From a virus, in IMG/VR virus record IMGVR_UViG_3300042988_000313, positions 1-38,401 of that record: a stretch of DNA of 38,401 nt; one strand, written 5' to 3'. Positions 1 through 27,948 of this stretch are shown here, in pieces. Made by a program: the position numbers and the translations under genes. The number at the start of each line of letters is the position of its first letter. Position 1 is the stretch's first letter. The notes below the pieces were generated by a model, which was not told the DNA's origin, did not search any database, and worked only from the letters and a program-made list of their open reading frames with translations.

Positions 1-730
1 CCAATTCTAATGGAGGTATACTTTTTAATTTTGTTTGGCAATCCGTTTCAGAGTATATTTCCATAGTGCAATCTTTTGGAATGGTTTGGGAAATCCTCTT
101 AGGTAATTTTCTAAACCAGTTTGTTATCTTTTTGGTAACAAATGTATCACCTCTTCTTGGAGATTCATGATTAAACAAAATACCGTTACAGGCAAACATA
201 CCATATGCTTCTCTATAGTTTCTAACCAACCAATATCCATATATTTTCGCACATCCATATGGGGAACGCGGGTGGAAAGGTGAATTCTCAGTGTATCCGA
301 ATTCCGGCATATTGTAACCCATGCCACCGTACAACTCGGATGTTGACGCTTGGTATATTTTACAATTTGGGACTATTATTCTCGCTGACTCTAATATGTT
401 CAATGTTCCTATACCGTCAACCTGCCCTGTATATTGGGGTAATTCAAAACTAACCTTAACATGACTTTGAGCGGCGAGATTGTATATCTCATCCGGTTTT
501 ATCTCCATTAATAAACGACTAACATTGGATGAATCGGTGACATCTCCATAGTGAATGAAAAGAGTTTTATTGTATATATCATGATTATTCATAAGTCCAT
601 CTATTCGGTCTGTATTAAAAACCGAAGACCGTCTTATCATCCCATGGACTTCATATCCTTTTTCCAATAAAAGTTCTATGAGATAGGAACCATCCTGTCC
701 ATTTGCACCTGTTACTAAAGCTTTTTTCAT
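1..730 (-). CDS. gmd: GDP-mannose 4,6-dehydratase, 5' part (runs off the window)
   Basis: The first 243 codons read open to the window edge. The product converts GDP-mannose to GDP-4-dehydro-6-deoxymannose, the entry to GDP-fucose, GDP-rhamnose or perosamine. Visible are the NAD(P)-binding loop TGANGQDG (residues 7-14), AAQSHV, the catalytic STSELYG, the Y-x3-K pair in SPYGCAK, and the family hallmark [12 protein letters not shown]. The family is usually 340-370 residues, so about one third lies outside. The ATG at 730 follows GGAGAG, which sits in a small hairpin (TCTCC-TAAT-GGAGA). It is probably used to glycosylate phage structures or to alter host surface sugars; that role is inference. 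Confidence 0.93.
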
Positions 731-749
731 GTAACTCTCCATTAGGAGA

Positions 750-2717: not shown

Positions 2718-3806
2718 TCACTCCTTGTTGATATTGGATGATTCCATTATCTGCTTCATATGGTTAATGTCAACCCCAATATCATTCATATCAACCTGAT
2801 TCAAATTGTGCTTAACTTGTTGTTCTTTCGGTAAACTCTTGAATCTTTCAACTTGTTCGTTAGCTTCTCTTTCCGCTCTTTCCATATTCTCATCTAGAGC
2901 GGATGGGTCATGGTTTCTATGCCTCGCCACAGCAGTTGACCTAACCTCGGCCATTCTACTCGCCAATTCAGGATCGTTATTTGGATCGCCCCTTGTAACC
3001 GTAGACTTCGGTGGAGATGCTTCTACTGGCGACGGGGGTTGCATCCCCGCAGCGGCGGCCATCATTTGCATCATAGCAAACATTGGATTTGGTTGACCAT
3101 TTGGAAAAGTCGGTGACATAAATGCCATCATGGGGTTAATTTGTGACTGACCGAGTTTTTTCGCTTCTTCCGGTATCTCGTTAACCTTAGGAGTATCGTT
3201 TTGATTTTCAGGTGTTACTGGTATGGGGATTTCCCTTGGATCCATAGGAATAACTTCTTCTGGATTATTTGGATTTGTTTTTTGTGGGGGTGGAGTTGAA
3301 CGCTGACCGGGGGATCTCTGTGACGCATTAAATGGTATATAACTCCAAAAGAAGTTCTTTTCATTCATAAGCGGTATTATTTTAGATATTGGCGTAACTG
3401 TTAGAGAATACTGTATCTGATTTAATATCGCCGGGGATCTGGCGAAAGACCTAAGAACAATTTCTCTAGCCTGGTCCGCAGTTGTAGCGAATACAAAGTA
3501 GAAATTTTTTAGACCACCCTGTAAACCTCTATCTTTAACTTCTGGACGGTTAGTAGTGTCCAAAACAACCAAATATCTTTCAGCCATCGGTATAACTCCT
3601 TGTTGATTATTATATAATGTTTTTACATTAAAATCTTTTTTTTCTTCTTTTTTTTCTATTTTTTCAAAATTGACAATATGATTATTTTTTATAGAAACAT
3701 CTGAATACTTGACACCTATCAAGTCATCTAAACATACATTATTTTTCTTTAATTCATTTTCTTCTTTTTTATTGAAGATTTTTAACAATGAACCAAAAAA
3801 ACCCAT
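2718..3806 (-). CDS. Unknown protein inserted between clamp-loader genes 44 and 62
   Basis: Not recognised. Residues 1-73 are Lys/Glu/Asn-rich and begin with an amphipathic MGFFGSLLKIF segment. Residues 74 to about 165 look like a compact alpha/beta domain (YLVVLDTTNRPEV, FYFVFATTADQAREI). Residues about 170-280 are Pro/Asn/Met-rich linker with NPMMAFM and MFAMMQMMAAAAGM, and the C-terminus is a charged helix. The start ATG overlaps the gp44 stop (TAATG) and has an SD. A second in-frame ATG at 3587 has a stronger SD (AAGGAG, 8 nt away), so a 289-residue short form may also be made. T4 has no gene here. Confidence 0.75.
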   Translation of the reverse strand: MGFFGSLLKIFNKKEENELKKNNVCLDDLIGVKYSDVSIKNNHIVNFEKIEKKEEKKDFNVKTLYNNQQGVIPMAERYLVVLDTTNRPEVKDRGLQGGLKNFYFVFATTADQAREIVLRSFARSPAILNQIQYSLTVTPISKIIPLMNEKNFFWSYIPFNASQRSPGQRSTPPPQKTNPNNPEEVIPMDPREIPIPVTPENQNDTPKVNEIPEEAKKLGQSQINPMMAFMSPTFPNGQPNPMFAMMQMMAAAAGMQPPSPVEASPPKSTVTRGDPNNDPELASRMAEVRSTAVARHRNHDPSALDENMERAEREANEQVERFKSLPKEQQVKHNLNQVDMNDIGVDINHMKQIMESSNINKE

Positions 3807-4708
3807 TACAACTCCTGCATAATTTTTAAAACAGTGGACATAAAATTAACTTCTAAGTCCGCAACATCTGCCTGTGACTTCATCCCATCGGCAGCATATA
3901 TCATTATAAAAGGCGCTTTTTCTTCCGATATTTCCTCAGACCTGTCAAAAATAACTTTAAACAAAGTATCGTATGTATCGGTCCCACAAACTTCTGACCG
4001 TATACGCTTCCAATTCTTTTCTTTTATTAGATTAATGAGGAGGTCATGACTTGTTGAAGAAAGTTTTGATACATCTACTTTAAAAGTACCACCAACGGTG
4101 AACTTGGACAATCCGCCAATAATACTCCTTATATCCGGGTAATATTGGTTAATAATATACTTTATGTCCCGCACAAAGTTCACAGATGTTATGTTTTCTT
4201 TGTCTAAAATATATTTGCACCGTTTAGCAACATCGTTTTTAGAGATGTTTTTAAAGTCAAACTTTTGACACCTTGACTCAATAGCATCTGGAATTTTTCC
4301 AGCGTGATTACCAGTGAGGAAGAACCTTACAGTTTCCATATATTCTTCCATGACTCCACGGAGCGCCTGCATTGTATCATGGGTCATATTATCAACTTCG
4401 TCCAAAATAACAACTTTTATACCACTCTCGTCCCAAGTCATTGTAGAACAGAAATTGACAATATCGTTTCTAAGAGTATCAATACCACGCTTTTCCGAAG
4501 AGTTTATAACCATAACTTCCTGAGTTATAGCCCTTGCTATTATCTTGGCACATGTTGTCTTTCCAACACCTGGAGTACCAACGAAAAGAAGGTGAGGTGG
4601 ATCTTTCTTTTCTATATATTCTTTGAACTTGACGAGCATATACTCGTCACCAATAACATCTTCCAAAATTTTTGGTCTATATTTTTCAACCAAAGGGGTC
4701 TTAGGCAT
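3806..4708 (-). CDS. 44: Sliding clamp loader ATPase (T4 gp44-like)
   Basis: AAA+ ATPase of the clamp loader, opening gp45 and placing it on primed DNA. It starts with the RFC-type VEKYRPK box; Walker A GTPGVGKTT is at 44-52, Walker B ILDEVD near 101-106, sensor 1 TGNH at 132-135 and the SRC motif at 145-147. The 300 residues are close to T4 gp44 (319). The ATG follows TGAGGAAAA. It overlaps the downstream unknown gene by one base. Confidence 0.95.
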   Translation of the reverse strand: MPKTPLVEKYRPKILEDVIGDEYMLVKFKEYIEKKDPPHLLFVGTPGVGKTTCAKIIARAITQEVMVINSSEKRGIDTLRNDIVNFCSTMTWDESGIKVVILDEVDNMTHDTMQALRGVMEEYMETVRFFLTGNHAGKIPDAIESRCQKFDFKNISKNDVAKRCKYILDKENITSVNFVRDIKYIINQYYPDIRSIIGGLSKFTVGGTFKVDVSKLSSTSHDLLINLIKEKNWKRIRSEVCGTDTYDTLFKVIFDRSEEISEEKAPFIMIYAADGMKSQADVADLEVNFMSTVLKIMQEL

Positions 4709-4720
4709 AAACGATTTTCC

Positions 4721-5203
4721 TCATAGTTTGATTATATTATACGAATCCCAAATAAGTTTCCAAATGGGAATTTCGGTGGAACCATGACCAACATTAGGCA
4801 AAACATGTTTTACTTGTATAAGAGGATCGGTTCTTATTTCGTATTTTTCAATAGTTTTACCATTTGTATCAAGGTATGATAAGCGAAAAAAATGATACTC
4901 TGTAAACGCTTCTCTGACAACATCTTTCTCATCTAATAAGAATGATATTATAATTCTATTTTCTTCAAAATTGATACCTCTTATGAGGGAAGATATTATT
5001 TCAGTTTTATATTCACCAATTTCAACTAAAAATAAATCACTACGCAACCCCAAACCTAAATTACTAGTTTTGACGAAAGGACTGTTAGTGGTATAAGGTG
5101 TTCCAATATAATGTGTATTGGTGGTTGATATCCACGATTTATATTGTTGCACCGGAGATGGGAATGTATAATTAAGTGGGTTTGTCTTTTTCTTTTTATC
5201 CAT
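4721..5203 (-). CDS. Unknown protein between clamp (45) and clamp loader (44)
   Basis: Not recognised. About 160 residues, starting with a Lys-rich stretch and a Pro/Thr/Ser-rich segment, followed by an apparently beta-rich region (SDLFLVEIGEYKTEII, IIISFLLDEKDVVREAFTEY, FFRLSYLDTNG). No signal peptide or membrane segment. The start is set at ATG 5203; a GTG one codon upstream is possible. It follows the gp45 stop closely with only a weak GGTGA, so it is probably translationally coupled. T4 has no gene at this position. Confidence 0.7.
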   Translation of the reverse strand: MDKKKKTNPLNYTFPSPVQQYKSWISTTNTHYIGTPYTTNSPFVKTSNLGLGLRSDLFLVEIGEYKTEIISSLIRGINFEENRIIISFLLDEKDVVREAFTEYHFFRLSYLDTNGKTIEKYEIRTDPLIQVKHVLPNVGHGSTEIPIWKLIWDSYNIIKL

Positions 5204-5207
5204 CACA

Positions 5208-5954
5208 TCACCGTATTAGAGGCGTCACGGAATGTAGTATGTCATAATACTCAGTATTATTTAAGAAAACTACTCCTTTTTCCAAAAGTGACACATTGAA
5301 AACACTATTCTTAGACATTACAATTGGTTGTAATTTATCCTTATCAACAACTATTCTAAATTCTTTTTCAACGGTTGTTGCAGGAACCGTTACTTTGAAA
5401 TTGTTATATTTTTTAAATTCTTTATTCGTGACCGTAATTGATACTGTTTTAGTGCTGACATCACCGGTGAATATAATATGTTCCTGCTTGAGCATAGACA
5501 TGGCGTTCATAAACTGCTTCATCTTAGCGTCCCAAACAAAAGTAGCATCTGGTTTAAATGATAATCCATTTATCTTGGATCCTGGTGCTTTTAGGGTATC
5601 TTTAGCGGAACACCCGTAATATAGAAACTTATTGGAATCGTTATCTATAGATGCCAACTCTTCAGTCAGTTTAAAAGTAAAACCCTCATCGAATATCTTT
5701 ATTATTCCAGAAAACTCCGATAAATTATGAATACCAAACTGGAATTTTTCTGAAACGGTTTCAAAACCGCTAAACAAATTTTGCTTGTAGTTAACAATAA
5801 CAAAATTTGATCCGTTTCCAGTCTGTGTTCCTATATTGAGAGTTCCATCCGAATTTATCTCCAGCAATATCCTATCAATACCGACACGCTGAATATCCAA
5901 GAGCGGGGTTAGAAGTGCCTCTACTTGCTTACTATTAAACTTCCCCTGTAGCAT
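5208..5954 (-). CDS. 45: Sliding clamp / DNA polymerase processivity factor (T4 gp45-like)
   Basis: Trimeric ring that tethers the gp43 polymerase and, in T4, activates late transcription with gp55 and gp33. The 248-residue sequence is diverged but has the length, the two-domain beta-rich character and the exact position (first gene before the clamp loader) of gp45. Features include FGIHNLSEFSGIIKIF (T4: VAIYDLNGFLGILSLV) and TFVWDAKMKQFMNAMSMLKQ in the second domain. The ATG follows AGGAGAGAAAAAT. A sigma70-like promoter lies just upstream. Confidence 0.85.
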   Translation of the reverse strand: MLQGKFNSKQVEALLTPLLDIQRVGIDRILLEINSDGTLNIGTQTGNGSNFVIVNYKQNLFSGFETVSEKFQFGIHNLSEFSGIIKIFDEGFTFKLTEELASIDNDSNKFLYYGCSAKDTLKAPGSKINGLSFKPDATFVWDAKMKQFMNAMSMLKQEHIIFTGDVSTKTVSITVTNKEFKKYNNFKVTVPATTVEKEFRIVVDKDKLQPIVMSKNSVFNVSLLEKGVVFLNNTEYYDILHSVTPLIR

Positions 5955-6014: not shown

Positions 6015-7376
6015 TTATTTTTTACTAAAAAAATTAATATAAGATTTAATTGATTCTTCCGAATCTGGAATAGTGACTACATTACATTTAGTATCATTAG
6101 CAAATTCGTCAAACCAATACTCCAGGTCGCTGTCTACTTTTATAATATTTGAGTAATCATTAAAGTGCTTTTTTACTAAATCTGGAATGTTATAAACGCT
6201 ACCGGAAACAACATTATAAAAGTTTGGTAATGTGCCATTTCTTTTGAATAACTCTCCATTTTTCATATTTTCATATACCCATTTGGATAGTACGTCAACA
6301 TCTGTTATTCCAATTTTTACCTGAGGGTCCTGATCAATAACCGTATTTGTTTTTACTTTTTCGTTTATCTTGTAAAGAATATTAACAGTATCATTGCGGT
6401 CAACTGAAAATAGATTGGAAACTCTTAAAACCGTGGTGTTTCTTTGCATCTTACCATTTGATTCAATGACATCGTTTAAAGAAGATTCATAAAATTGCTT
6501 TGTGCGCGTGTAGTCGCTTAATTTACCACGAACATTACCTTCCTTAATTTTCTGATACACATAGTCCGTGCTAAAGTGAATAAACTTAACATCCGACCGT
6601 GAGCACCTTTCACCCATTAGGAATGGAAAATCGGAGTTTACCCAAACCATATCTTTACTTTGTTTTTTGTCGGTATTTATGGTCTTTGTTCTGGTATCAG
6701 CGGCACAGTTTATAATAACAACCTCCCCCGCTTCGGTGAGTTTTGCCGATTCTTTTATACGATCTACAAATTTCTGAACGTATATACTATCATACGCTGG
6801 AAACTTTTCATATACAGGTATAACTTGATGATTTGCTATACCCATATTATCAAAGAGAACCTTAGTTATAGACTTTCCAAGTCTCCCACCCGCTCCAAGA
6901 ACAACATACACAGTAGTATCTTTCAACTTTGGTTCGTGGCGCGTTTCGTCTGTCTTTTCCTTCTTATCCTTACCCATGAATAAGGAGGTTGGGAAGTTTC
7001 CAGTGAGTGACACCTTGTTGTCAAGATTTCTATACGAGTGTATTATTGGAGGCGATACCGTAACTCTCGTTATCTTGGTAGGATCGGTTCGGAATGTCTT
7101 TGTTTCTCCAGTTTCCGGATTGTGGAGCATGTATACCATATCAGATCGCCAGGAAATAAATTCGTCCCGTTGCGATGAATGTTGATGTGGCCCCCGTATG
7201 ACATATGGCGCCGTTTCAGACCAGTATGACATGACAGAATCCTTCATTCGATCATCGTCATTTCTCCAAACCTCTACAAGACTACCTCTAGAATCTTTAT
7301 ATTCCTTAATTTCATCAATTATAACTTTCCCATCAAACCAATTATGAATTTCTTTATGTGAAACTGTTGTATTCAT
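6015..7376 (-). CDS. RmlC-like cupin fused to dTDP-4-dehydrorhamnose reductase (RmlD)
   Basis: Two-domain sugar enzyme of the dTDP-L-rhamnose pathway. Residues 1 to about 140 resemble the RmlC 3,5-epimerase cupin (SRGSLVEVWRNDD, YVIRGPHQHSSQRDEF with its histidines, and SPPIIHSYRNL). A charged linker (KDKKEKTDETRHEPK) leads into an RmlD-like short-chain dehydrogenase: nucleotide loop VVLGAGGRLGKS, NCAADTRT, FSTDYVYQ and the Y-x3-K pair in YTRTKQFYES. In bacteria these activities are usually separate proteins. The ATG follows GTGAGGAAAA, just after rmlB. Substrate specificity is inferred from the neighbouring rmlB. Confidence 0.8.
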   Translation of the reverse strand: MNTTVSHKEIHNWFDGKVIIDEIKEYKDSRGSLVEVWRNDDDRMKDSVMSYWSETAPYVIRGPHQHSSQRDEFISWRSDMVYMLHNPETGETKTFRTDPTKITRVTVSPPIIHSYRNLDNKVSLTGNFPTSLFMGKDKKEKTDETRHEPKLKDTTVYVVLGAGGRLGKSITKVLFDNMGIANHQVIPVYEKFPAYDSIYVQKFVDRIKESAKLTEAGEVVIINCAADTRTKTINTDKKQSKDMVWVNSDFPFLMGERCSRSDVKFIHFSTDYVYQKIKEGNVRGKLSDYTRTKQFYESSLNDVIESNGKMQRNTTVLRVSNLFSVDRNDTVNILYKINEKVKTNTVIDQDPQVKIGITDVDVLSKWVYENMKNGELFKRNGTLPNFYNVVSGSVYNIPDLVKKHFNDYSNIIKVDSDLEYWFDEFANDTKCNVVTIPDSEESIKSYINFFSKK

Positions 7377-7391
7377 TTTTCCTCACTTATA

Positions 7392-8426
7392 TCAAAAGAA
7401 TATTTGTTTATTTTTAATGCAAAAATCTACGCAAGTTTTCATATACTCCTCTACACTAACACCATCAAAATATTTGTCTATATATTCTTCGGTTATTAGA
7501 GCGTAGGCAGTATCATGTCCCAATCTATCCTGAATATATTCCTTTTTCAATTCATAACCATATCCACTCATAACCCTTTCAAGCATACTAACTATTTCAT
7601 TGTTTGTAAATACACCATTTTTATTTGCTATATGTATTACACTGTCATCTACAGTAATAACTCCACCTAAAACATCAAGTATTATCCCCGCTGTTATTTC
7701 TACTGGAGTCCACTGTCTAATATTTTTACCGTTACCATATACTTTAACAGTATCACCATTAAGAACTCTTAGTATACTCGCCATTAACATTTTTTCTTTA
7801 TGCTGATATTTTCCAGGTTGTTGGTTGGCCATTCTTATAAATTTGACATTAAGACCGTATGTATGTTTTATAGACATTAGAAAGCAATCTTGAGCGGCCT
7901 TTGACGCCGAATATGGATTATTGGGTTTTAATGGCGTATCCACTGTAAACCAATATTTTTTATCATGCACATTTTCCAGCGGTATCTCCGAATAAACCTC
8001 ATCAGTGCTTATATGATAATAAGTTTTTATACTTTTCCATTTATCTTTACCTATCCACGATAAAAGATTTGAAGGTATGGCGCAATTTTGTGTGTATATG
8101 AAGAAAGGATCTTTTATACTATTATCCACATGCGATTCGCTTGCGAAATCCAGAATGTCTATACTTTCATCATCGTAATGTTGATATTTTTTATGTTTAA
8201 ATTCGTTAGAATTGATATCACATTCTAAAGATATTACCTTGGTAAACTTGTCTAATTTATTTAAAATTTGATAATAAAAAGACCTATTAAACTCTGTAGC
8301 ATATCCCATTTTATCTATTGATATTATTCTATTATAATTCTTTGCTAGATTTTGTCTCTCCGAAAGTTTCTCCAGAGTGTTAATGCCGACAAAACCAGCG
8401 GATCCAGTTATTATCAATGTATTCAT
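7392..8426 (-). CDS. rfbB: dTDP-glucose 4,6-dehydratase (RmlB)
   Basis: Second step of dTDP-rhamnose synthesis: dTDP-glucose to dTDP-4-keto-6-deoxyglucose, NAD-dependent. Seen are the nucleotide loop TGSAGFVG (7-14), FASESHVDNSI, the catalytic HISTDEVYSE and the Y-x3-K site NPYSASKAAQD. The usual RxxNxYGPxQ region is altered to RMANQQPGKYQHKEK. The 344 residues are normal for the family. The ATG follows TATAGGAGAATAAAGT. A terminator for gene 32 lies just upstream. No rmlA gene is in the window. Confidence 0.9.
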   Translation of the reverse strand: MNTLIITGSAGFVGINTLEKLSERQNLAKNYNRIISIDKMGYATEFNRSFYYQILNKLDKFTKVISLECDINSNEFKHKKYQHYDDESIDILDFASESHVDNSIKDPFFIYTQNCAIPSNLLSWIGKDKWKSIKTYYHISTDEVYSEIPLENVHDKKYWFTVDTPLKPNNPYSASKAAQDCFLMSIKHTYGLNVKFIRMANQQPGKYQHKEKMLMASILRVLNGDTVKVYGNGKNIRQWTPVEITAGIILDVLGGVITVDDSVIHIANKNGVFTNNEIVSMLERVMSGYGYELKKEYIQDRLGHDTAYALITEEYIDKYFDGVSVEEYMKTCVDFCIKNKQIFF

Positions 8427-15935: not shown

Positions 15936-15963
15936 ATATTACGAATTACGGTTTATGAGTAAA
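15936..15963 (-). promoter_or_regulatory. sigma70-like promoter for gene 43
   Basis: Minus strand TTTACT (15963-15958), 16-nt spacer, TAATAT (15941-15936). The predicted start, about 15929, puts the operator hairpin at the very 5' end of the mRNA. Confidence 0.35.
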
Positions 15964-16999
15964 TTTTTCTATACAATCCTATATTATTCTCATCTTCTAA
16001 CCATCTCTTATTCAATTCCACCTGTCCAGCATTTTTAAGTTTTTCTCTTTCGTCTTGATTCTTATACAACTCCATTATACAACTATACCAATCGTCTGGA
16101 TTATTCGGAATCGTTTTAAGTCCATTTATTAAATCATATGGACCTTTCTTATCACCTATTGTGGATGCAATGGTTGGCAATCCAAGAGCAGAATATTCCA
16201 GTATCTTTAGGTCCGATTTTGCTAAATTAAACTGATTATCATAAATTGGTGCCAGGGCAATGTCGGCGTTTATACTGTCTAATTTCTGCGCATAGTCATA
16301 AACATTGGCCCAGTCATGGAATTCGACCATGCCCTGTAATTCTGGTGGTTGAACACCAAAAAACACCCACTGAATATCATTCAATGTCTTTTTTATCAAT
16401 GGTATTAAAAATTCCAGATCGCCGCCTTTACCAAGATGTGATGCAGATCCCGCCCACAAAACCCTTGGGCGACCCCTGGTATCCTTGTTTGCTTTATCTC
16501 TTTTACCACACTGACCCCATAGATATTTTGGTAAATAATTTGGAATAACTACAGAGTTATCTATTTGATAATTGCTGGCATAAAAATCTTTTAAATACTT
16601 AGTGGAGAATGTTACCACATCCATCATTTTAAAAATCTCTATGAGATTATTTCTACGGATAGGTGAGTAAAACTGATAAGCTAAAATATTATTCGGCGCT
16701 ATACCATGAACTAGATCATCCAACTCATATGCCAATTTACATTTTGATCCACATTTGTTTATTTGAAACTTATACTGCATCATCAATTTCTTCTGCGTTT
16801 CAGTAACCTGTCTTTGAAATCTTATATACGCTGCCCTTCTAACATAATTAAGATCAAAGTTATAAGCGTATAACTCAGATAAATGATATTCCGAATACTT
16901 AACAGAAAGGTAACGGAATGGTAAAAAAGTCCTATAAAACCCACATCCATTTTTATCAGATGGGTACAATATTATAGATTTGGGTTCCGGTTTAGACAT
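15953..16999 (-). CDS. Glycosyltransferase, GT-B (GT4-like)
   Basis: Transfers a sugar from an activated donor; acceptor unknown. The 348 residues have the GT4 layout: an N-terminal Rossmann half with a Gly-containing loop (YPSDKNGCGFYRT), then the C-terminal donor domain with RVLWAGSASHLGKGG, WVFFGVQ, ADIALAPI, and the KILEYSALGLPTIAS segment holding the E-x7-P-like motif that binds the donor phosphate region. No signal peptide or membrane segment. ATG follows GGGGGA. It lies alone between gene 43 and the divergent gene 55. It probably uses the activated sugars made by gmd and rml; that link is inference. Confidence 0.85.
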   Translation of the reverse strand: MSKPEPKSIILYPSDKNGCGFYRTFLPFRYLSVKYSEYHLSELYAYNFDLNYVRRAAYIRFQRQVTETQKKLMMQYKFQINKCGSKCKLAYELDDLVHGIAPNNILAYQFYSPIRRNNLIEIFKMMDVVTFSTKYLKDFYASNYQIDNSVVIPNYLPKYLWGQCGKRDKANKDTRGRPRVLWAGSASHLGKGGDLEFLIPLIKKTLNDIQWVFFGVQPPELQGMVEFHDWANVYDYAQKLDSINADIALAPIYDNQFNLAKSDLKILEYSALGLPTIASTIGDKKGPYDLINGLKTIPNNPDDWYSCIMELYKNQDEREKLKNAGQVELNKRWLEDENNIGLYRKIYS

Positions 17000-21464: not shown

Positions 21465-21623
21465 TCATATGTTTTCCGAAATTATGTATCCGCACTTTCT
21501 AGAAAAGTCCCATTTTACGAGTGGGTGGATATTTGTTTTCCCGCCATACCTTTTGTTTTCTCTTCTTCTTTCTTTCGTCCGAAGAATATTATGATGATGT
21601 CTTGGTATGTTACCTTCCATCAT
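21465..21623 (-). CDS. Possible small basic protein (52 aa)
   Basis: A short ORF starting ATGATG, with AAGGAC upstream at loose spacing. The product is Arg/Lys/His-rich and ends DFSRKCGYIISENI. No family recognised. It may be a remnant or chance ORF in this gap. Confidence 0.25.
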   Translation of the reverse strand: MMEGNIPRHHHNILRTKERRRENKRYGGKTNIHPLVKWDFSRKCGYIISENI

Positions 21624-21703
21624 AATATTACTGATGTCCTTTTTGAATGGTGAGGACTAACTTAGGAAACCATTAAAATCATTATACAAGTTATTTTATT
21701 TCT

Positions 21704-23215
21704 TCAACCCATCTTGATAGATTCTGGTAAATTTTTATTTCCATTGTCATGATTTATTAATATGAATATACCAAAAATAATTGTCTTTTCATTATACATA
21801 AAAGTAGCGGTGGTAGATCTAAAATAATGGAATTTGCTAGACCATTTAAACCATATTTTTCTGGCATCTTCTATAAACTTCTCAGCGTGTCCTCCGCTAA
21901 GATTCGATCTTCCATCTGACAAATGAATACACTCGGCGTCTATGGCAAAATTCCTATATCCTTTGGATAATGCATCTAAACAAATATCCGTTCCGTACCA
22001 ATGAAAATGATCCAATAATTTTTCATCAAATTTAAATGGTGCGTTTTTAGGAACTATGAGGCAGAGTTCATCTACAGTCTGAACTTCTTTACGATTGCCT
22101 ATCAATCCTCTATATGCTTGTGCATAAGTTCTACCATCCGCTAGTTTATCAGACAAATATAGAATACACCCGTCACTATCGGGGGTGTTAGGTCTTCCGG
22201 TCTTAAAACATCCAGCCATTCCAAGAACACCCCATGGTATTTTTTTAGACTCAAAATATTTAACATGCTTTAAAATACCTTGTATCCATATATCATTAAC
22301 ACGTAGGTCTTGATGACACATAATGACAACATCACTATCGGATAACTCTCTACCGAGATTTAACGCTTCAGTGCAGCTCGAAAATTCCATATTATAGTTA
22401 CATATACAAACTATTTCATATGTGAATTTTGTTCTTTGTTTACTTATATCTTCTATGAAATCGTTATACTGATTTATATTATGTGTTAATGTTACTATTG
22501 ATACATCTACTTTTTTAGTTTTAAGGTATTTTTCTAAAAGTATGGTTTTAACGTGATTTGATGATAACTCATATATGTCCACATACTTTGGAGTGGAAAA
22601 TTTACTAATAGATAATAACTTAACAAAAGTTGATACATAATCATCAACATATACTAAAGATGCTTTATGTCTAATAATGAATCTATCGGTGAGGTTATCT
22701 ATGTCACTTTCTTTTATGGTCTTTAATTCCACTGGTTCCGATTCACTAACCCATATATACTCTATGTTTTTTATAAAACTCTTATTTGAGTTTATCGTTA
22801 CAAAACGATGCACTTCATCATGACTACCATCAAGTAGAATAACAACATGAATTCCATTTTTAGGATAGTTTGATATATGGTTCCTGATGTTTGTAACAAT
22901 TTGCAAACCGTCTGTATTCAGTGGTAATGCAGATTCATCTTCAAACATCTCGGCATATTTTACATTTTCTAAAGAATGATGTATTCCATCTGAAGGTTTC
23001 ATAAATTTCCTCATTGGGGAAGATGGGTTATGTTTTACCACTTTTGGTAGAATTTTATTAAATTCTTCATATTGTGATTCTTCAACTTCCACCAACCCTC
23101 TATATATTTTAAAATGGTCTGGACCATCAACTATTGCCCCGGGTGGAATGTTTATCTTCCTTCCCATATGCAATAAACTTAAATTTCTAACCGAAGTGTT
23201 TTTAAATTTAGGCAT
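21704..23215 (-). CDS. Glycosyltransferase, GT2-like (GT-A), with N-terminal extension
   Basis: 503 residues. Residues 1 to about 60 (SVRNLSLLHMGRKINIPPGA) look like a small beta domain. The middle (about 85-230) is unrecognised. From about 235 a GT-A glycosyltransferase is visible: VDVSIVTLTHNINQY, SDSDVVIMCHQDLRVND (CHQD in place of the DxD metal site), WGVLGMAGCF, and HFHWYGTDICLDALSKG with a likely catalytic acidic residue. The start overlaps the end of the uvsW C-half gene by 8 nt, so it is translated from the same mRNA. The acceptor may be a virion protein or cell wall sugar; not determinable. Confidence 0.8.
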   Translation of the reverse strand: MPKFKNTSVRNLSLLHMGRKINIPPGAIVDGPDHFKIYRGLVEVEESQYEEFNKILPKVVKHNPSSPMRKFMKPSDGIHHSLENVKYAEMFEDESALPLNTDGLQIVTNIRNHISNYPKNGIHVVILLDGSHDEVHRFVTINSNKSFIKNIEYIWVSESEPVELKTIKESDIDNLTDRFIIRHKASLVYVDDYVSTFVKLLSISKFSTPKYVDIYELSSNHVKTILLEKYLKTKKVDVSIVTLTHNINQYNDFIEDISKQRTKFTYEIVCICNYNMEFSSCTEALNLGRELSDSDVVIMCHQDLRVNDIWIQGILKHVKYFESKKIPWGVLGMAGCFKTGRPNTPDSDGCILYLSDKLADGRTYAQAYRGLIGNRKEVQTVDELCLIVPKNAPFKFDEKLLDHFHWYGTDICLDALSKGYRNFAIDAECIHLSDGRSNLSGGHAEKFIEDARKIWFKWSSKFHYFRSTTATFMYNEKTIIFGIFILINHDNGNKNLPESIKMG

Positions 23216-24083
23216 TCTTAACTACCACATCTTTTTCTGTGTAATCGAAATTGTTGTCTTTATAATATTTCTTACGCTTTTTAGAATGGGATTCTGAGAA
23301 GCGAAGATTTTCACATATATCATACAGGTGAAGTTTATCCTTGGTATTATGGAGTCGAAGTCCACGCCCGACCGATTGGAGTGTTTGTATCTTACTCTTT
23401 CCAGCAGATGCGAAAATAACGGTATGCAGGCGATTTATTGATACCCCCGTTGAATAAACACCAACGGTCGCAACTATCACATTTCCACCGCTTTTTTCCA
23501 TTCCATGTCTAGCGGAGTTGCGTTCATCCATCTTAGTCTCACCTGTTACAATTGTAACATTCAATCCCATTTTTTTAAGCATATCGCTAATATTTTCTGT
23601 GTGATCTATCTTTTTAACCAATATTAGGACATTCTTATCATTTTTTGTATATTCTTGTGCTATCTTACATATAACCTTATTACGATAAGGGTCAGATTCT
23701 ATGTAATCTTTCTCCTGTTGATAATCGCTTATAGCATTTTGCTCGACAATTTCTTTAGGATATATCATGTTAATAATACGAACTGATATATCCGCTATTT
23801 GTTTAGCATCTTGAAGCTCCGTGTATCCAACCTTGTCAATTACCGGACCTAATATACCTTCTACAAGCATATAGTCTGCCTTGCTTTCGGGCATAGTCCC
23901 CGTTGCCCCGATTCGGATAGTGGCATTAGTCATTTTTTCAGCAACAGAGCGAACAACATCTGCTTTTAAACCGTGACAGTTTGATACGCAAATACCACCT
24001 GCAAAATAGTTATGATTATCTTCTATATGAAGATTATAGACATCATCAAAATAATCAATTTTTTCTATTTTAGTTATTTTCAT
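23208..24083 (-). CDS. uvsW: UvsW helicase C-terminal half preceded by C-intein
   Basis: 291 residues. Residues 1-35 are a C-intein ending CVSN. From C36 the sequence CHGLKADVVRSVAEKM resumes the helicase exactly where the N-half stops, restoring DECH. Helicase motifs follow: GATGTMPESKADY (motif III region), VLILVKKIDHTENISDML and VTGETKMDERN (IV), VATVGVYSTGVSI (V) and QSVGRGLRLH (VI). UvsW is the T4 branch-migrating helicase of recombination and origin R-loop removal. The ATG overlaps the endonuclease stop (ATGA) and has no SD, so translation is probably coupled to the endonuclease gene. Confidence 0.93.
   Translation of the reverse strand: MKITKIEKIDYFDDVYNLHIEDNHNYFAGGICVSNCHGLKADVVRSVAEKMTNATIRIGATGTMPESKADYMLVEGILGPVIDKVGYTELQDAKQIADISVRIINMIYPKEIVEQNAISDYQQEKDYIESDPYRNKVICKIAQEYTKNDKNVLILVKKIDHTENISDMLKKMGLNVTIVTGETKMDERNSARHGMEKSGGNVIVATVGVYSTGVSINRLHTVIFASAGKSKIQTLQSVGRGLRLHNTKDKLHLYDICENLRFSESHSKKRKKYYKDNNFDYTEKDVVVKNA
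23979..24083 (-). other. C-terminal split intein fragment (IntC, 35 aa)
   Basis: Block F is clear: DVYNLHIEDNHNYFAGGI. The C-terminal splice junction is CVSN|C: the cyclising Asn is present and the +1 residue is Cys. The penultimate residue is Ser, where most inteins have His. The fragment begins at its own start codon, as in natural split inteins. Confidence 0.92.
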
Positions 24084-25069
24084 AGTGATTTTAATGCTTT
24101 TATTATTTTACTGTTATTTGTCATTTTTATTATATCATTTTTACGATTACTAAAAAAATCTTCCGATATTACTTCAAAAGTATATCCATTTTCAATACAC
24201 CATTTTTCAGCAGCTTTAAATTTAATCTCGTTTATATTTTTATTTTTTAATTTAGAAGGTTTAATTTCAAATAAAATTTTATTGTTATTGTCAACAAAAT
24301 CAACTATATAAACATGATGCTTACCATCTTCGCTAAGATATGGTATTCTTACTGTTTCATAATCGTGTTTTGTTAGTAACCAAAACATACATTCCCAGGT
24401 GCTTCTAAACATATACGATGTCCCATCTATCTTTATTTTTACTCTTGAATTCGCCCAACTGTTAGTTATAGGTGGGGTAAAAGAACCATTTTTTATAGAT
24501 TCTTTCATTTTTATACTTTGTTTCATCTTCGCATTATTTTTTGTTTCTTCTGACATTTTATGACATGAATTTAAATCTCCTCTCATACGGTCAGACGATA
24601 ATTTACTTATGCATATCGGTGATATACATGTCTTTGTGTATCCTCTTAATATACTAATAAACTTTGTAGGTTTATTACAACAACGACAAAAATTATTATT
24701 TAGATGTATTTGATCATAAATTTTTTTCTGTATGGTTTTTTTATCGTCAGTTTCGTATATATTATCAAAAGTTTTCAATATATCTCTTTTCTCTAAAAAA
24801 GAGTATGGGTTTTGAACGAATCCTAAAAGGTTTCTAGGATTATCTATTATGTAGTTATACACTAATTGTTTGTCATTCTTTATATCTTCTATTAAAGTTA
24901 TTTTCTGCTTAGATAATTCTCGTTTTACATCGTCAATTTTATATGCTTTAATTTCCATGTTGCGAAGTTTCACATAAACAAAAGGTATATCAAAACTCTT
25001 AGCATAAACCAAAAAAAACTTATAGTCTATTTTCAGAATCTTAGATAATTCTTTTAATGTATAAAACGT
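24080..25069 (-). CDS. Free-standing PD-(D/E)XK homing endonuclease-like gene inside fractured uvsW
   Basis: An HTH-like N-terminus (LKELSKILKIDYKFF), a Cys-rich zinc-finger-like part (CRCC near TTG-form residues 109-112, then CISPIC), a NUMOD3-like linker (MSEETKNNAKMKQSIKMK), and a PD-(D/E)XK nuclease: RSTWE, VYIVDF, LFEIKPSK (E207, D238, E249, K251 counted from TTG 25012). The catalytic part resembles gene 4. The only good SD (AGGAG) places the start at ACG 25069; a TTG at 25012 lacks an SD. It has its own late promoter. It probably cuts intein-free uvsW alleles. Confidence 0.85.
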   Translation of the reverse strand, partial: TFYTLKELSKILKIDYKFFLVYAKSFDIPFVYVKLRNMEIKAYKIDDVKRELSKQKITLIEDIKNDKQLVYNYIIDNPRNLLGFVQNPYSFLEKRDILKTFDNIYETDDKKTIQKKIYDQIHLNNNFCRCCNKPTKFISILRGYTKTCISPICISKLSSDRMRGDLNSCHKMSEETKNNAKMKQSIKMKESIKNGSFTPPITNSWANSRVKIKIDGTSYMFRSTWECMFWLLTKHDYETVRIPYLSEDGKHHVYIVDFVDNNNKILFEIKPSKLKNKNINEIKFKAAEKWCIENGYTFEVISEDFFSNRKNDIIKMTNNSKIIKALKSL

Positions 25070-25087
25070 ATAATTCTCCTATATGTT

Positions 25088-25095
25088 TATTTATA
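25088..25095 (-). promoter_or_regulatory. T4-type late promoter for the homing endonuclease
   Basis: Exact TATAAATA on the minus strand in the gap after the N-intein stop. Predicted +1 near 25082, two nt before AGGAG. It would also supply late mRNA for the uvsW C-half. Confidence 0.7.
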
Positions 25096-25107
25096 TTTGC
25101 TCTAAAA

Positions 25108-25398
25108 CTATGTCTCTCTGATTTCATCATCTGTTGTTAATTCATCAACTCTAACCCATCCCCTATTAGTAGTCATAACTTTATGATTTCCTGTTATTCT
25201 TATTTTTTTACCATTTTCCATACTTAGGCAATACATCTGATTTCCCTTAGATATGTTATGGTGAACCTTAACAACTGGTTTATTTTCTATTTGTTTAGTT
25301 TTTTCATTTACGGTTTTAACCATATCGCCTATATTAATATCTTTTATGGGTTTGTATGAACCGTCGGATAAAGTTATCAGTGTCTCCGGATGCAAACA
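25108..25398 (-). other. N-terminal split intein fragment (IntN, 96 aa)
   Basis: Cys1 begins block A: CLHPETLITLSDGSYKPIKD followed by INIGDMV. Block B is KIRITGNHKVMTTNRGW, with the T-x2-H pair, then VDEL. The fragment ends at its own TAG after DDEIRET. With the 35-residue IntC the intein totals 131 residues, a minimal size with no internal endonuclease. Confidence 0.93.
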
Positions 25399-26103
25399 CT
25401 CATCAACTATAAGCACCGTGAAATCTTTCAGGAACTCTTTTTGTTTATAGATAGACTGCCAAGTAGAAACTATAAATGGTTCATCAGTATCTTTTTGGTA
25501 TCCACAATATTTACCTATCAAGTCCTCCGGTATGCCAAACGAAGTCATATTCTCAACAAACTGCTCAACCAAGTCTAATTTTGGAACAAGAATGAGTATT
25601 TTATTGTTTTTATTCTTTTGATACAAATAATTAATAGTTAATGTTATTGTTAGAGATTTTCCAGATGATGTAACATGCTCACATATACCTCTTTCAAAGT
25701 ATAGGGACTTTAACGCTCCCCTATACTGATGTGTATATGGAACAACACCGGAGTCCAAAGTCTCTTCCGTTATCTTGAAGAAGTCCTCTTTAAGCGCGGC
25801 AGTATCTTTATTGGTTAAAGAATTAAACTTAGGATCAATAACCAATTCATATAAATCATCATTTCTCACATATTTAAGGAGACGATGGTAAATTCCAGTA
25901 TAAAAAGTACCATTATAATTTAAAAATCTTATCTTACCATCCCACCTTCCAGACTTATACGCTGGCATGAAAAAGTAATTTTCCACCGGTACTGCGAATC
26001 TTTTAACAGCAGCATCCATTAATTTTGGATCATCACATATCATCTGACCGTATATGTTATCTATCCAAACAAAAGTTATTTTTGGTTTATCTTGATTTTC
26101 CAC
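25108..26103 (-). CDS. uvsW: UvsW helicase N-terminal half fused to N-intein
   Basis: 331 residues. Residues 1-235 are the UvsW N-terminal domain and first helicase lobe: FAVPVENYFFMPAYKSGRWDGK, motif I HVTSSGKS, motif Ia ILVPKLDLVEQF, the VSTWQSIYKQ stretch (T4 VGTWQTVVKQ), and motif II VLIVDE at the end. The N-intein starts at C236. Joined to the C-half after splicing the protein would be about 491 residues (T4 503). Translation starts with GTG 26103, no SD, 7 nt after an extended -10 (TGATATAAT). It lies directly after uvsY, as in the T4 uvsW-uvsY region. Confidence 0.93.
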   Translation of the reverse strand: MENQDKPKITFVWIDNIYGQMICDDPKLMDAAVKRFAVPVENYFFMPAYKSGRWDGKIRFLNYNGTFYTGIYHRLLKYVRNDDLYELVIDPKFNSLTNKDTAALKEDFFKITEETLDSGVVPYTHQYRGALKSLYFERGICEHVTSSGKSLTITLTINYLYQKNKNNKILILVPKLDLVEQFVENMTSFGIPEDLIGKYCGYQKDTDEPFIVSTWQSIYKQKEFLKDFTVLIVDECLHPETLITLSDGSYKPIKDINIGDMVKTVNEKTKQIENKPVVKVHHNISKGNQMYCLSMENGKKIRITGNHKVMTTNRGWVRVDELTTDDEIRET

Positions 26104-26110
26104 ACATATA

Positions 26111-26119
26111 ATTATATCA
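26111..26119 (-). promoter_or_regulatory. Extended -10 promoter for the uvsW N-half, candidate leaderless
   Basis: Minus strand TGATATAAT, with TATAAT at 26116-26111, overlapping the uvsY stop region. Seven nt separate it from GTG 26103. No good -35. Confidence 0.4.
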
Positions 26120-26590
26120 GTTTATTCTTGTAAATTCTGATTTTCTTATATCTGAAATTGTTTTTAGGTCAAATCTTTTAGATTTTAGCATATCTAAAAC
26201 CGATTGTATATATTCCACAAACTCCAATTGATTCTGGACATGTGCTTTTGCCTTTGCAATTTTGGAATCTCTTATAATAAACCCATCAATCTCATTCGTT
26301 GTTCTATACATAAGTGGATTTTGTTTGGCAACATCTATCATTTCGGCGTAAAGTCTCTCATACTTTGCCTTCATTTTGTTATAAGTATGTTTTTCTCTTG
26401 CATATATATCATTTATACGCATGTATGCTGAGTGACACTTTATAAGTTGTATATCAAGACCATCTTCATCATTATATGCTAAAGATGGTATATTTTCACT
26501 TCTAAACTTTTCAAATTTTTCCGAGAATAATTTATCAACATCGTCTATTACTTCATTTATACTTTTATCAACTGGTAATGATTCTGACAT
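26117..26590 (-). CDS. uvsY: UvsY recombination mediator
   Basis: Loads UvsX on gp32-coated ssDNA. 157 residues against 137 in T4. The helix-rich middle and the C-terminal signature FVEYIQSVLDMLKSKRFDLKTISDIRKSEF match T4 LLDFCSGALDAIKSRGFAIKHIQDMRAFE in pattern. ATG follows AGGGGATAAA. It is adjacent to uvsW, as in the T4 cluster. Confidence 0.82.
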   Translation of the reverse strand: MSESLPVDKSINEVIDDVDKLFSEKFEKFRSENIPSLAYNDEDGLDIQLIKCHSAYMRINDIYAREKHTYNKMKAKYERLYAEMIDVAKQNPLMYRTTNEIDGFIIRDSKIAKAKAHVQNQLEFVEYIQSVLDMLKSKRFDLKTISDIRKSEFTRIN

Positions 26591-26638
26591 TTTATCCCCT
26601 TATACGTTTGACTATTTAGATGGAATGTGTTATACTTT

Positions 26639-26646
26639 TATAAATA
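26639..26646 (+). promoter_or_regulatory. T4-type late promoter
   Basis: Exact TATAAATA on the plus strand, predicted +1 near 26652, ahead of the gene at 26673. It opens the long rightward late gene block. Confidence 0.75.
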
Positions 26647-26672
26647 GTTTAGCAGGAAGGTGAATTTATTCA

Positions 26673-27026
26673 ATGCCAAATGATATAGACGACCATATTA
26701 TTAAAATAGAAAAAGAAAAGATGAATCCTCTTACGGATGCGTCTATATCCGAGATATTTTCAATATTACGATATCAGGATAGTGACATGTCTGTTTTGTT
26801 GGATATTATACTAAGACTTATAATGGATATAGACGACCAAAACAAAAAAACCCTAATAATGACAAAAATATTGAAATTTTATGGCATAAACAATAATGAT
26901 ATTTTAACTTCCAGACAAAGATTTGTTATAGAAGATGGTAATCTTGTAAAAATTCCATTTTTAAAGAATAAACAAAAGGAAATGTTACAGGTAATTATAG
27001 ATCAATTGGATATAAAGGTTTTATAA
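26673..27026 (+). CDS. Small unknown late protein (117 aa)
   Basis: Not recognised. An acidic, helix-rich protein: SISEIFSILRYQDSDM, LLDIILRLIMDIDDQNKK, TKILKFYGINNNDI, ending in a helix (EMLQVIIDQLDIKVL). No Cys, signal peptide or clear membrane segment. AGGAAGG lies 12 nt before the ATG, a long spacing. The next gene starts one base after its stop, so they are co-translated. Late promoter upstream points to assembly or virion role. Confidence 0.75.
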   Translation: MPNDIDDHIIKIEKEKMNPLTDASISEIFSILRYQDSDMSVLLDIILRLIMDIDDQNKKTLIMTKILKFYGINNNDILTSRQRFVIEDGNLVKIPFLKNKQKEMLQVIIDQLDIKVL

Positions 27027-27027
27027 T

Positions 27028-27948
27028 ATGTCAAAAAATTCTTTTAAATCTTTTTTCCTTGAGCGGGTTATTAGTGAAACCGCCGAACCTCCGTTGAATA
27101 GTCCGGTGGTTAGCGATGAAACCGTTGTTGTTGATAAATGGGACGTTATACTATTTTCAGGGGAATATAATCCAATAACCAAAGATGAATATTCAAGAAT
27201 ATGTCAATTTATTGACAAATTCGTTGGGCGGGAGAAACACCAATTCGGTGATAATATCGACATTGGATTGGTTACTGATTATGATGACGGTTATGAAAAT
27301 GACATATCCAACAAAATGACATATGACCTGACTATAGAAGAGCGGAACTTCATATCTACTAAATTCTTTGGTCTTAAGTTATTTCCGGTAAATTTTGAGA
27401 AAATGTTGCATTTGATTCGTGACACTGAAACAAAATCTTCCAATCCAGAATTTATGAGTGAAGTTAATGATATGATAGTTAACTTCAAAGAGAATTTTCA
27501 TGGTTCCAATATACTAATAGTTTTGCGTAGGGAAGATGCCAAAGATATAGATAAATTAGAAGTCATATCAAAGGTTGCCAGAGGTGGACTTAATATTGGG
27601 TTTATCATATGGGACCATGATATGGAATCGGAATCAAAATTATTCGGTAGGAGTATACCTATAAACGGTAGCATAATTAAGGCAATAACTCTTCTTGATG
27701 TTGAGCGTCCAAATCCAGAAGAGATAAAAGCGTTTGCTCATAAGTATAAAGTCCAACAGTGGATAAATGAGATAAAAAAGATACATTTTAAGGTTAATAA
27801 TGACAGATATATTATTGCTTTTAGATGTGTTTTTCCAGAATTAAATATCTCTCAAGGTGCCGATGATTCTGAAGTTGAATCCAATGCGAGGGTCGCTATG
27901 GAAATGTTAAAAACTATGTATTTGAAGAATTTTATAGATACTAAATAA
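27028..27948 (+). CDS. Late protein with degenerate nucleotidyltransferase-like fold and prohead-type N-terminus
   Basis: 306 residues. The N-terminus SFKSFFLERVISE ends in I-S-E (15-17), a T4 prohead-protease type site, and resembles capsid-targeting sequences. Residues 39-61 (DVILFSGEYNPITKDEYSRI) follow the cytidylyltransferase first strand and HIGH-like motif pattern (F-x-G-R-F-NPPTxGH), but the GH is replaced by DE, so catalysis is doubtful. Later SIPINGSIIKAI recalls the ISGT..R region. Related-looking nucleotidyltransferase proteins with similar leaders occur in T4-like marine phages. Fold assignment is tentative. Confidence 0.72.
   Translation: MSKNSFKSFFLERVISETAEPPLNSPVVSDETVVVDKWDVILFSGEYNPITKDEYSRICQFIDKFVGREKHQFGDNIDIGLVTDYDDGYENDISNKMTYDLTIEERNFISTKFFGLKLFPVNFEKMLHLIRDTETKSSNPEFMSEVNDMIVNFKENFHGSNILIVLRREDAKDIDKLEVISKVARGGLNIGFIIWDHDMESESKLFGRSIPINGSIIKAITLLDVERPNPEEIKAFAHKYKVQQWINEIKKIHFKVNNDRYIIAFRCVFPELNISQGADDSEVESNARVAMEMLKTMYLKNFIDTK

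What the first reader, a model, noticed from the sequence alone, without database searches (positions are those of the whole stretch)
23208..26103. Fractured uvsW: split intein in the DECH box with a free-standing homing endonuclease between the halves
The N-half ends ...VLIVDE then a Cys1 intein (blocks A and B) and a stop. The C-half starts with a 35-residue intein (block F, SN|C) and resumes CHGLKAD. Joining the exteins gives an intact DECH box and a UvsW of about 491 residues. A PD-(D/E)XK endonuclease gene sits between. Similar 'fractured genes' with split inteins are known from metagenomic phage data for other genes (for example gp41 helicase); I do not recall one in uvsW, so novelty is possible but unchecked. 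The insertion sits in the catalytic Walker B motif, where only trans-splicing would give active helicase.
Basis: partly seen in the sequence, partly recalled or inferred. Interest (0 to 1): 0.93.

Follow-up and report, generated by a model that had tools for sequence, protein, structure and literature searches.

The report
Phage helicase gene split by intein
In this phage the DNA-repair helicase UvsW is encoded in two pieces, each fused to half of a self-splicing protein element (a split intein), with a mobile DNA-cutting enzyme gene wedged between them; the arrangement is real and the pieces are very probably joined after translation, but it belongs to a known class of 'fractured genes' and already sits, unrecognised in the annotation, in several sequenced phages.

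Summary
On the minus strand uvsW is broken inside its DECH box: N-half plus 96-aa IntN (26103-25108), an endonuclease gene (about 25069-24080), and 35-aa IntC plus C-half (24083-23208). The joined exteins are 491 aa, exactly the length of an uninterrupted relative (L011). IntN, IntC and the nuclease all pass curated family cut-offs. A naturally fused homologue models as a Hint intein (matches include gp41-1, NrdJ-1, Npu DnaE); the nuclease models as TnsA-like (Z 9.5).

It is not unique. The same layout at the same DE|CH point occurs in Salmonella phages S16, STP4-a, CF-SP2 and SEA1, Proteus phage PM2 and Lak megaphages (annotated 'DNA helicase'/'hypothetical' or not at all), and widely in IMG/VR: 146 loci, 86 non-redundant, from contiguous inteins through split+nuclease to split with decayed or missing nuclease. 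Relatives show purifying selection on exteins and intein, empty alleles, and a conversion tract over the insert. Related elements sit in a DinG-like helicase, also at DE|CH.

Verdict: a real fractured gene, protein trans-splicing very likely, new member of a known kind. I found no open paper reporting it in uvsW; Dassa 2009 could not be read.

The parts
25399..26103 (-). UvsW N-extein, 235 codons, GTG start; UvsW_N domain, Walker A (TSSGKS), ends ...VLIVDE
25108..25398 (-). IntN, 96 codons plus TAG stop; Cys1 codon 25398-25396, block B TGNH
   Evidence: Pfam Intein_splicing, TIGR01445; alignments
24080..25069 (-). Free-standing TnsA-like PD-(D/E)XK nuclease gene; start ACG 25069 (AGGAG upstream) or TTG 25012, unresolved
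   Evidence: PF08722; AlphaFold model pLDDT 87; VIA Z 9.5 to TnsA 1t0f
24083..24517 (-). Nuclease domain (residues 185-329 of P0003); putative active site E226, D257, E268-x-K270
24080..24083 (-). ATGA: start codon of the IntC ORF overlaps stop codon of the nuclease ORF
   Evidence: sequence; overlap in 41 of 46 measurable non-redundant relatives
23979..24083 (-). IntC, 35 codons, ends ...VSN; Asn codon 23981-23979, +1 Cys codon 23978-23976
   Evidence: TIGR01443; alignments
23208..23978 (-). UvsW C-extein, 256 codons plus stop; begins CHGLKAD, Helicase_C domain

Best explanation
This is a fractured uvsW gene. Shown from sequence: the two halves of the UvsW helicase are separate ORFs, each carrying one half of a Cys1...Asn|Cys split intein, with a TnsA-fold nuclease gene between them. 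Inferred: IntN and IntC associate after translation, fold into a Hint domain, excise themselves and ligate Glu235 to the Cys of the DECH box, giving a 491-aa UvsW. Also inferred: the nuclease is a homing endonuclease that cuts uninterrupted DECH-box alleles so that the IntN-nuclease-IntC block is copied in by recombination, and translation of the C-half is coupled to the nuclease ORF through the ATGA overlap. Whether the nuclease of this particular phage is still well expressed is open.
For: Curated family hits for both intein halves, both helicase halves and the nuclease. Joined exteins 491 aa = intact relative L011 491 aa; empty site VLIVDE|CHGLKAD. Exteins of window and L009 88/85% identical, dN about 0.1 with saturated dS; close pairs of relatives have dN/dS about 0.05-0.3 in exteins, IntN and IntC. 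Same layout in cultured phages, without a second uvsW in the S16 and PM2 records. Split halves persist where the nuclease has decayed or gone (L019, L022, L023, L041, L045, L079, L092). Junction DE|C...(S/A/H)N|CH in 82 of 86 non-redundant loci. Fused natural homologue L029 folds as Hint, matching gp41-1, NrdJ-1 and Npu DnaE. Mobility: L028/L034 insert 97-100% identical with flanks falling to 88-93%, nuclease dS 0.01 vs extein dS 0.24-0.31; PM2/S16 IntN 89% vs exteins 60-63%.
Against: No biochemical data. Penultimate intein residue is Ser, not His, and the residue before the block F His is Asn, not Asp, although both are shared by many relatives. The nuclease lacks an ATG/GTG at its apparent start (ACG), so this copy may be poorly expressed. 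The record is a fragment, so an intact uvsW elsewhere in this phage is not excluded.
Confidence: 0.9

Rival explanations
1. UvsW works as two non-covalently assembled pieces, as reported for a T-even NrdA broken by a homing endonuclease gene; the intein halves no longer ligate.
For: Such a gene-in-pieces is published for phage ribonucleotide reductase (cited in PMC10448857).
Against: The break lies between E and C of the catalytic DECH box; IntN and IntC are under purifying selection and keep Cys1, TxxH, Asn and +1 Cys. A relic intein would decay, yet in L022/L023 the intein is better conserved than the exteins.
Confidence: 0.04
2. uvsW is dead here: the nuclease gene broke it and neither piece works.
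For: Two ORFs instead of one; window record is only a fragment.
Against: Exteins strongly conserved (88/85% to L009, dN about 0.1 with saturated dS), no frameshift or stop in either half, same state stable across dozens of lineages.
Confidence: 0.02
3. The intein halves only cleave (BIL- or Hedgehog-like autoprocessing) and do not ligate.
For: Hint-fold matches include BIL and Hedgehog domains.
Against: C-terminal Asn and +1 Cys present and almost invariant at the junction; best curated hits are the intein N- and C-terminal splicing models.
Confidence: 0.02
4. The insert is removed at RNA level (intron) or the locus is an assembly chimera.
For: HEN genes often lie in introns; single metagenomic contig.
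Against: No Rfam intron match in 21500-27500; contigs from two other datasets and cultured phages carry the layout, with the same UvsY-like and glycosyltransferase neighbours in the closest relatives.
Confidence: 0.01

Closest known systems
Fractured genes with split inteins (Dassa et al. 2009, NAR 37:2560; gp41, NrdA/NrdJ, IMPDH types)
   Same: Conserved replication/repair gene broken in two by a split intein with a free-standing endonuclease gene between the halves.
   Different: Nuclease here is TnsA-like; Dassa's new family is Vsr-related (from memory and title, paper not held). Whether uvsW was among their host genes could not be checked.
uvsW loci of Salmonella phages S16, STP4-a, CF-SP2, SEA1 and Proteus phage PM2
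   Same: Same gene, same DE|CH insertion point, homologous IntN (about 49%), IntC and TnsA-like nuclease.
   Different: Nuclease N-terminal part differs; penultimate residue His (AHN) instead of Ser; larger ORF overlaps. Not annotated as inteins in the records.
Pseudomonas phage MIJ3 split PolB intein with HNH nuclease (PMC6892783)
   Same: Published cultured-phage case of a split intein with a nuclease ORF between gene halves.
   Different: Host gene PolB, Ser1 intein, HNH nuclease.
TnsA nuclease of Tn7 (1t0f, 1f1z) and Pfam PF08722
   Same: Fold of the nuclease domain (Z 9.5, 137 residues) with PD-(D/E)XK residues.
   Different: 12% identity; no transposition partners; other N-terminal DNA-binding part.
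I-Bth0305I (3r3p), Vsr-like homing endonuclease
   Same: Related nuclease core (Z 5.6).
   Different: Much weaker match than TnsA and no family hit.

Membership tests
Fractured gene (split intein + free-standing endonuclease) | Conserved enzyme gene broken into two ORFs by IntN and IntC | tested here: met
Fractured gene (split intein + free-standing endonuclease) | Endonuclease ORF between the halves | tested here: met
   PF08722 hit and TnsA fold
Fractured gene (split intein + free-standing endonuclease) | Protein trans-splicing of the halves | not testable with these tools
   needs expression; motifs intact
Class 1 intein (Hint) | Cys1, block B TxxH, C-terminal Asn, +1 Cys/Ser/Thr | tested here: met
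   C1, TGNH, N35|C+1; junction census
Class 1 intein (Hint) | Penultimate His in block G (common, not universal) | tested here: not met
   VSN here; SN in 69 of 86 non-redundant loci. Npu DnaE also ends in SN (from memory), so not disqualifying
Class 1 intein (Hint) | Hint fold | tested here: met
   Shown on the natural fused homologue L029 (pLDDT 86; Foldseek E down to 1.6e-10), IntN 54% identical to the window's; the window's own pair was not modelled
UvsW helicase | UvsW_N, RecA-like domains, DECH box after joining | tested here: met
   intact relative L011
TnsA-like PD-(D/E)XK nuclease | Fold and D...ExK motif | tested here: met
   PF08722; Z 9.5; D257 and E268 invariant, K270 nearly so in 38 sequences
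Homing endonuclease | Site-specific cleavage of the empty allele | not testable with these tools
   no assay
Homing endonuclease | Copying of the element into empty alleles | tested here: inconclusive
   Empty alleles and a conversion-tract pattern in relatives; synonymous saturation prevents the test for the window itself

The most novel reading that the evidence does not exclude
The DE|CH split intein with its TnsA-fold nuclease is a distinct and very common phage mobile element that targets the Walker B motif of SF2 helicases, has moved between different helicase genes (UvsW-like and DinG-like), and whose fracture of the host gene is reversible: nuclease loss leaves bare split inteins, and in at least one lineage (L029/L030) IntN and IntC have fused again into a contiguous intein that keeps the old IntC start Met.
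Probability: 0.45. Interest if true: 0.65.

Novelty: new member of a known kind. Interest (0 to 1): 0.5.

Why it matters
It opens a large, so far unannotated set of natural inteins (86 non-redundant loci found here, mostly split) at one catalytic site of phage helicases, including cultured phages in which trans-splicing across a Walker B motif can be tested directly. The series intact / contiguous / split with nuclease / split with remnant / split without nuclease is a ready system for asking how genes become permanently split and whether that reverses. uvsW of S16, PM2 and relatives should be re-annotated, and the inteins are candidates for protein-ligation tools.

Tried and rejected
Assembly artefact: rejected (independent contigs, cultured phages). 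RNA intron: no Rfam match in the region. Second uvsW: none in this record, nor in the S16 and PM2 records. Homologues of the nuclease's N-terminal 108 aa in phages: none credible, so the ACG start could not be checked by alignment. PDB sequence searches with the nuclease: none credible (weak I-CreI matches at E 0.06-0.6 over about 33 positions taken as chance). A joint alignment of IntN and IntC rows with fused L029 misaligned and was replaced by IntN rows only. An 'open frame 978' value for the L046 record was checked by translation: many stops, no read-through; ignored. Window vs L009 cannot give conversion breakpoints because synonymous sites are saturated. Papers: none in the open library joins uvsW with a split intein; Dassa 2009 not held.

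Full report
What is there. The window is a whole IMG/VR virus record of 38401 bases, from a T4-related phage: it encodes gp32-, DnaB-, RecA/UvsX-, PolB-, clamp-loader-, SbcC-, UvsY- and portal-like proteins. On the minus strand uvsW is in two ORFs. The first (26103-25108) ends its helicase part in ...VLIVDE and continues for 96 codons with CLHPETLITLSDGSYKPIKDINIGDMV...TGNHKVM...DDEIRET before a TAG stop. The second (24083-23208) starts with MKITKIEKIDYFDDVYNLHIEDNHNYFAGGICVSN and resumes CHGLKADVV. The joined exteins are 491 aa.

Statistical support. IntN passes the curated cut-offs of Pfam Intein_splicing, Pfam Hint and TIGR01445; IntC passes TIGR01443; the halves match UvsW_N, ResIII and Helicase_C; the middle ORF passes PF08722. 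T4 UvsW (2oca) aligns with both halves. PHROGs already holds families made of such halves (phrog_16259 and phrog_9690, both called DNA helicase), a sign that the arrangement has been in databases without being named.

It is not unique. tblastn finds the same three-part locus in Salmonella phages S16, STP4-a, CF-SP2 and SEA1, Proteus phage PM2 and Prevotella Lak-B megaphages. In all of them the break is DE|C...N|CH. The annotations read DNA helicase / hypothetical protein / DNA helicase; the Lak record is unannotated. In the S16 genome and the PM2 record only the fractured copy gives strong matches to the UvsW profile, one half on each side of the break.

Close relatives. L009 and L010, from two other metagenomes, are fractured in the same way (exteins 85-88% identical). 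L011 and L012 carry an intact 491-aa UvsW reading VLIVDECHGLKAD. All have a UvsY-like gene upstream and a glycosyltransferase-like gene downstream. In an extein tree the intact L011 lies inside a clade of otherwise fractured alleles (window, L009, L022, L023; starred branches), so the element has been gained or lost within this group. Window and L009 have IntC 94% and exteins 85-88% identical, but IntN only 53% and nuclease 42%. Compared with other pairs this is unusual and fits replacement of the IntN-nuclease block by recombination, though synonymous saturation prevents mapping breakpoints.

Survey. Scans of IMG/VR with IntN and IntC alignments confirmed 149 and 188 relatives (80 kept each). 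Together with the phage loci, 146 loci hold both halves, 86 of them non-redundant; 69 end SN|CH, 10 AN|CH and 3 HN|CH after DE|C. By structure: 64 have a 0.7-1.5 kb insert, usually with the nuclease (54 in UvsW-like helicases, 9 in a DinG-like helicase, and Lak-B); 6 have 150-700 nt left, in several a nuclease remnant; 8 have under 150 nt; 7 are contiguous single-ORF inteins; one (L051) has 4.3 kb of other genes between the halves. Gene classes come from BLAST to a small panel, so 'UvsW' there means UvsW-like SF2 helicase, and the set is biased by its seeds. The second class matches phrog_2488 and Helicase_C_2, again at DE|CH. On the intein tree the DinG class needs three changes of label, at least two forced by starred branches, so the element moved between the two helicase genes more than once or moved and returned.

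Direction of change. L029 is contiguous but keeps the IntC initiator as an internal Met (...LEDYF-MKIKSIKK...) and lies among split relatives on the intein tree (starred branch) and, with lower support, on the extein tree. The simplest reading is re-fusion of a split intein after nuclease loss; this is inference. At least six changes of nuclease status are forced by starred branches of the extein tree.

Selection and mobility. Window vs L009 exteins have dN about 0.1 with dS saturated. In closer pairs dN/dS of exteins, IntN and IntC is mostly 0.05-0.3. L028 vs L034: nuclease dS 0.01 and IntN 0.06 against extein dS 0.24-0.31; identity is 97-100% across the insert, stays at 96-98% just outside it, then falls to 88-93%. 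This is the expected mark of homing with co-conversion. PM2 vs S16 (IntN 89%, IntC 94%, exteins 60-63%) and L022 vs L023 (83%, 91%, 53-59%) show the intein more alike than its host gene.

Nuclease. The model (pLDDT 87) matches TnsA at Z 9.5 over 137 residues, with I-Bth0305I next at 5.6; Foldseek's own top hits are TnsA with weak E-values (0.04-0.08). D257 and E268 are invariant and K270 nearly so among 38 relatives; E226 of RSxWE is shared in the smaller alignment. Relatives of this nuclease also sit between the halves of terL in T4-like phages: in Yersinia phage TG1 the terminase is broken at YIDE|C...SHN|C, again a Walker B DE|C, and in a large uncultured phage between halves of a clamp-loader-like gene at LDE|C...HN|CDGAS.

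Intein fold. The natural contiguous homologue L029 models as a Hint domain (pLDDT 86, pTM 0.81) and matches solved inteins, among them Ssp and Npu DnaB, NrdJ-1, gp41-1 and Npu DnaE. The window's own IntN-IntC pair was not modelled, because a joined sequence is not the window's own.

Expression. In 41 of 46 measurable non-redundant relatives the nuclease stop overlaps the IntC start; in the window it is ATGA. Inference: the C-half is translated by coupling or reinitiation after the nuclease ORF, which would protect the nuclease frame from nonsense mutations. In the window the nuclease frame has AGGAG well placed before ACG (25069) but no ATG or GTG there; the first canonical start is TTG at 25012. 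Start usage is unresolved, and the nuclease may be weakly expressed or on its way to loss.

Mechanism, step by step. Shown by sequence: split gene, intein motifs, nuclease fold and motif, conserved junction, purifying selection, conversion-tract pattern in relatives. Inferred: association and trans-splicing of the halves, restoration of the DECH box, DNA cleavage by the nuclease, translational coupling. Not shown: any biochemical step.

Compared with what is known. The layout is that of fractured genes (Dassa et al. 2009, known here through citations and memory only; not held); a cultured-phage case in PolB is published (PMC6892783). No open paper found joins uvsW with a split intein. I therefore file it as a new member of a known kind. 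The wider family picture (helicase Walker B target, TnsA-fold nuclease, repeated nuclease loss, re-fusion) is the part most likely to be new.

Noticed in passing
window 25069-25067 (- strand): The nuclease frame is preceded by AGGAG at start-site spacing, but the codon there is ACG; first canonical start is TTG at 25012. The copy may be weakly expressed, use a rare start, or be losing its start codon.
   Followed up: partly
L051 5019-9807 and L142 (contig IMGVR_UViG_3300036670_000273): The two fractured uvsW halves are 4.3 kb apart with several genes between them, two resembling tail-fibre families, and no nuclease hit; if not a chimera, the split gene has been rearranged and depends on trans-splicing.
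   Followed up: partly
L029 and L030, 4980-5459: Contiguous intein in uvsW that keeps the IntC start Met inside the linker and nests among split relatives: probable re-fusion of a split intein.
   Followed up: partly
L015-L019, L025, L026, L043, L048, L053: Related split intein in a DinG/XPD-like helicase (phrog_2488), also at DE|CH, mostly with a TnsA-like nuclease (only a remnant in L019); best IntN identity to the window (about 61%).
   Followed up: yes
L173 (Yersinia phage vB_YenM_TG1) 1920-4769: Terminase large subunit is in two ORFs with a TnsA-like nuclease between; short atypical IntN after YIDE|C and long IntC ending SHN|C. Similar annotations in many T4-like phages.
   Followed up: partly
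L008 (LR756500.1) 2888-5633: Clamp-loader-like gene broken at LDE|C...HN|CDGAS with a related TnsA-like nuclease between the halves, in a 462 kb uncultured phage.
   Followed up: partly
L074 4176-7018: uvsW split at a different site (GSE|C...KN|CNEM, after the helicase TGT motif), with a nuclease of another family (phrog_655, homing endonuclease).
   Followed up: partly
L003 2279-2914 and L002 5646-6356: S16 has a homing endonuclease gene just before the N-half and PM2 has another HNH-like ORF just after the C-half: uvsW is flanked by further mobile nucleases.
   Followed up: no
window 2-742, 6015-8426, 15953-16999, 21704-23215: Nucleotide-sugar epimerase/dehydratase and glycosyltransferase-like genes are interspersed with the replication genes.
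   Followed up: no
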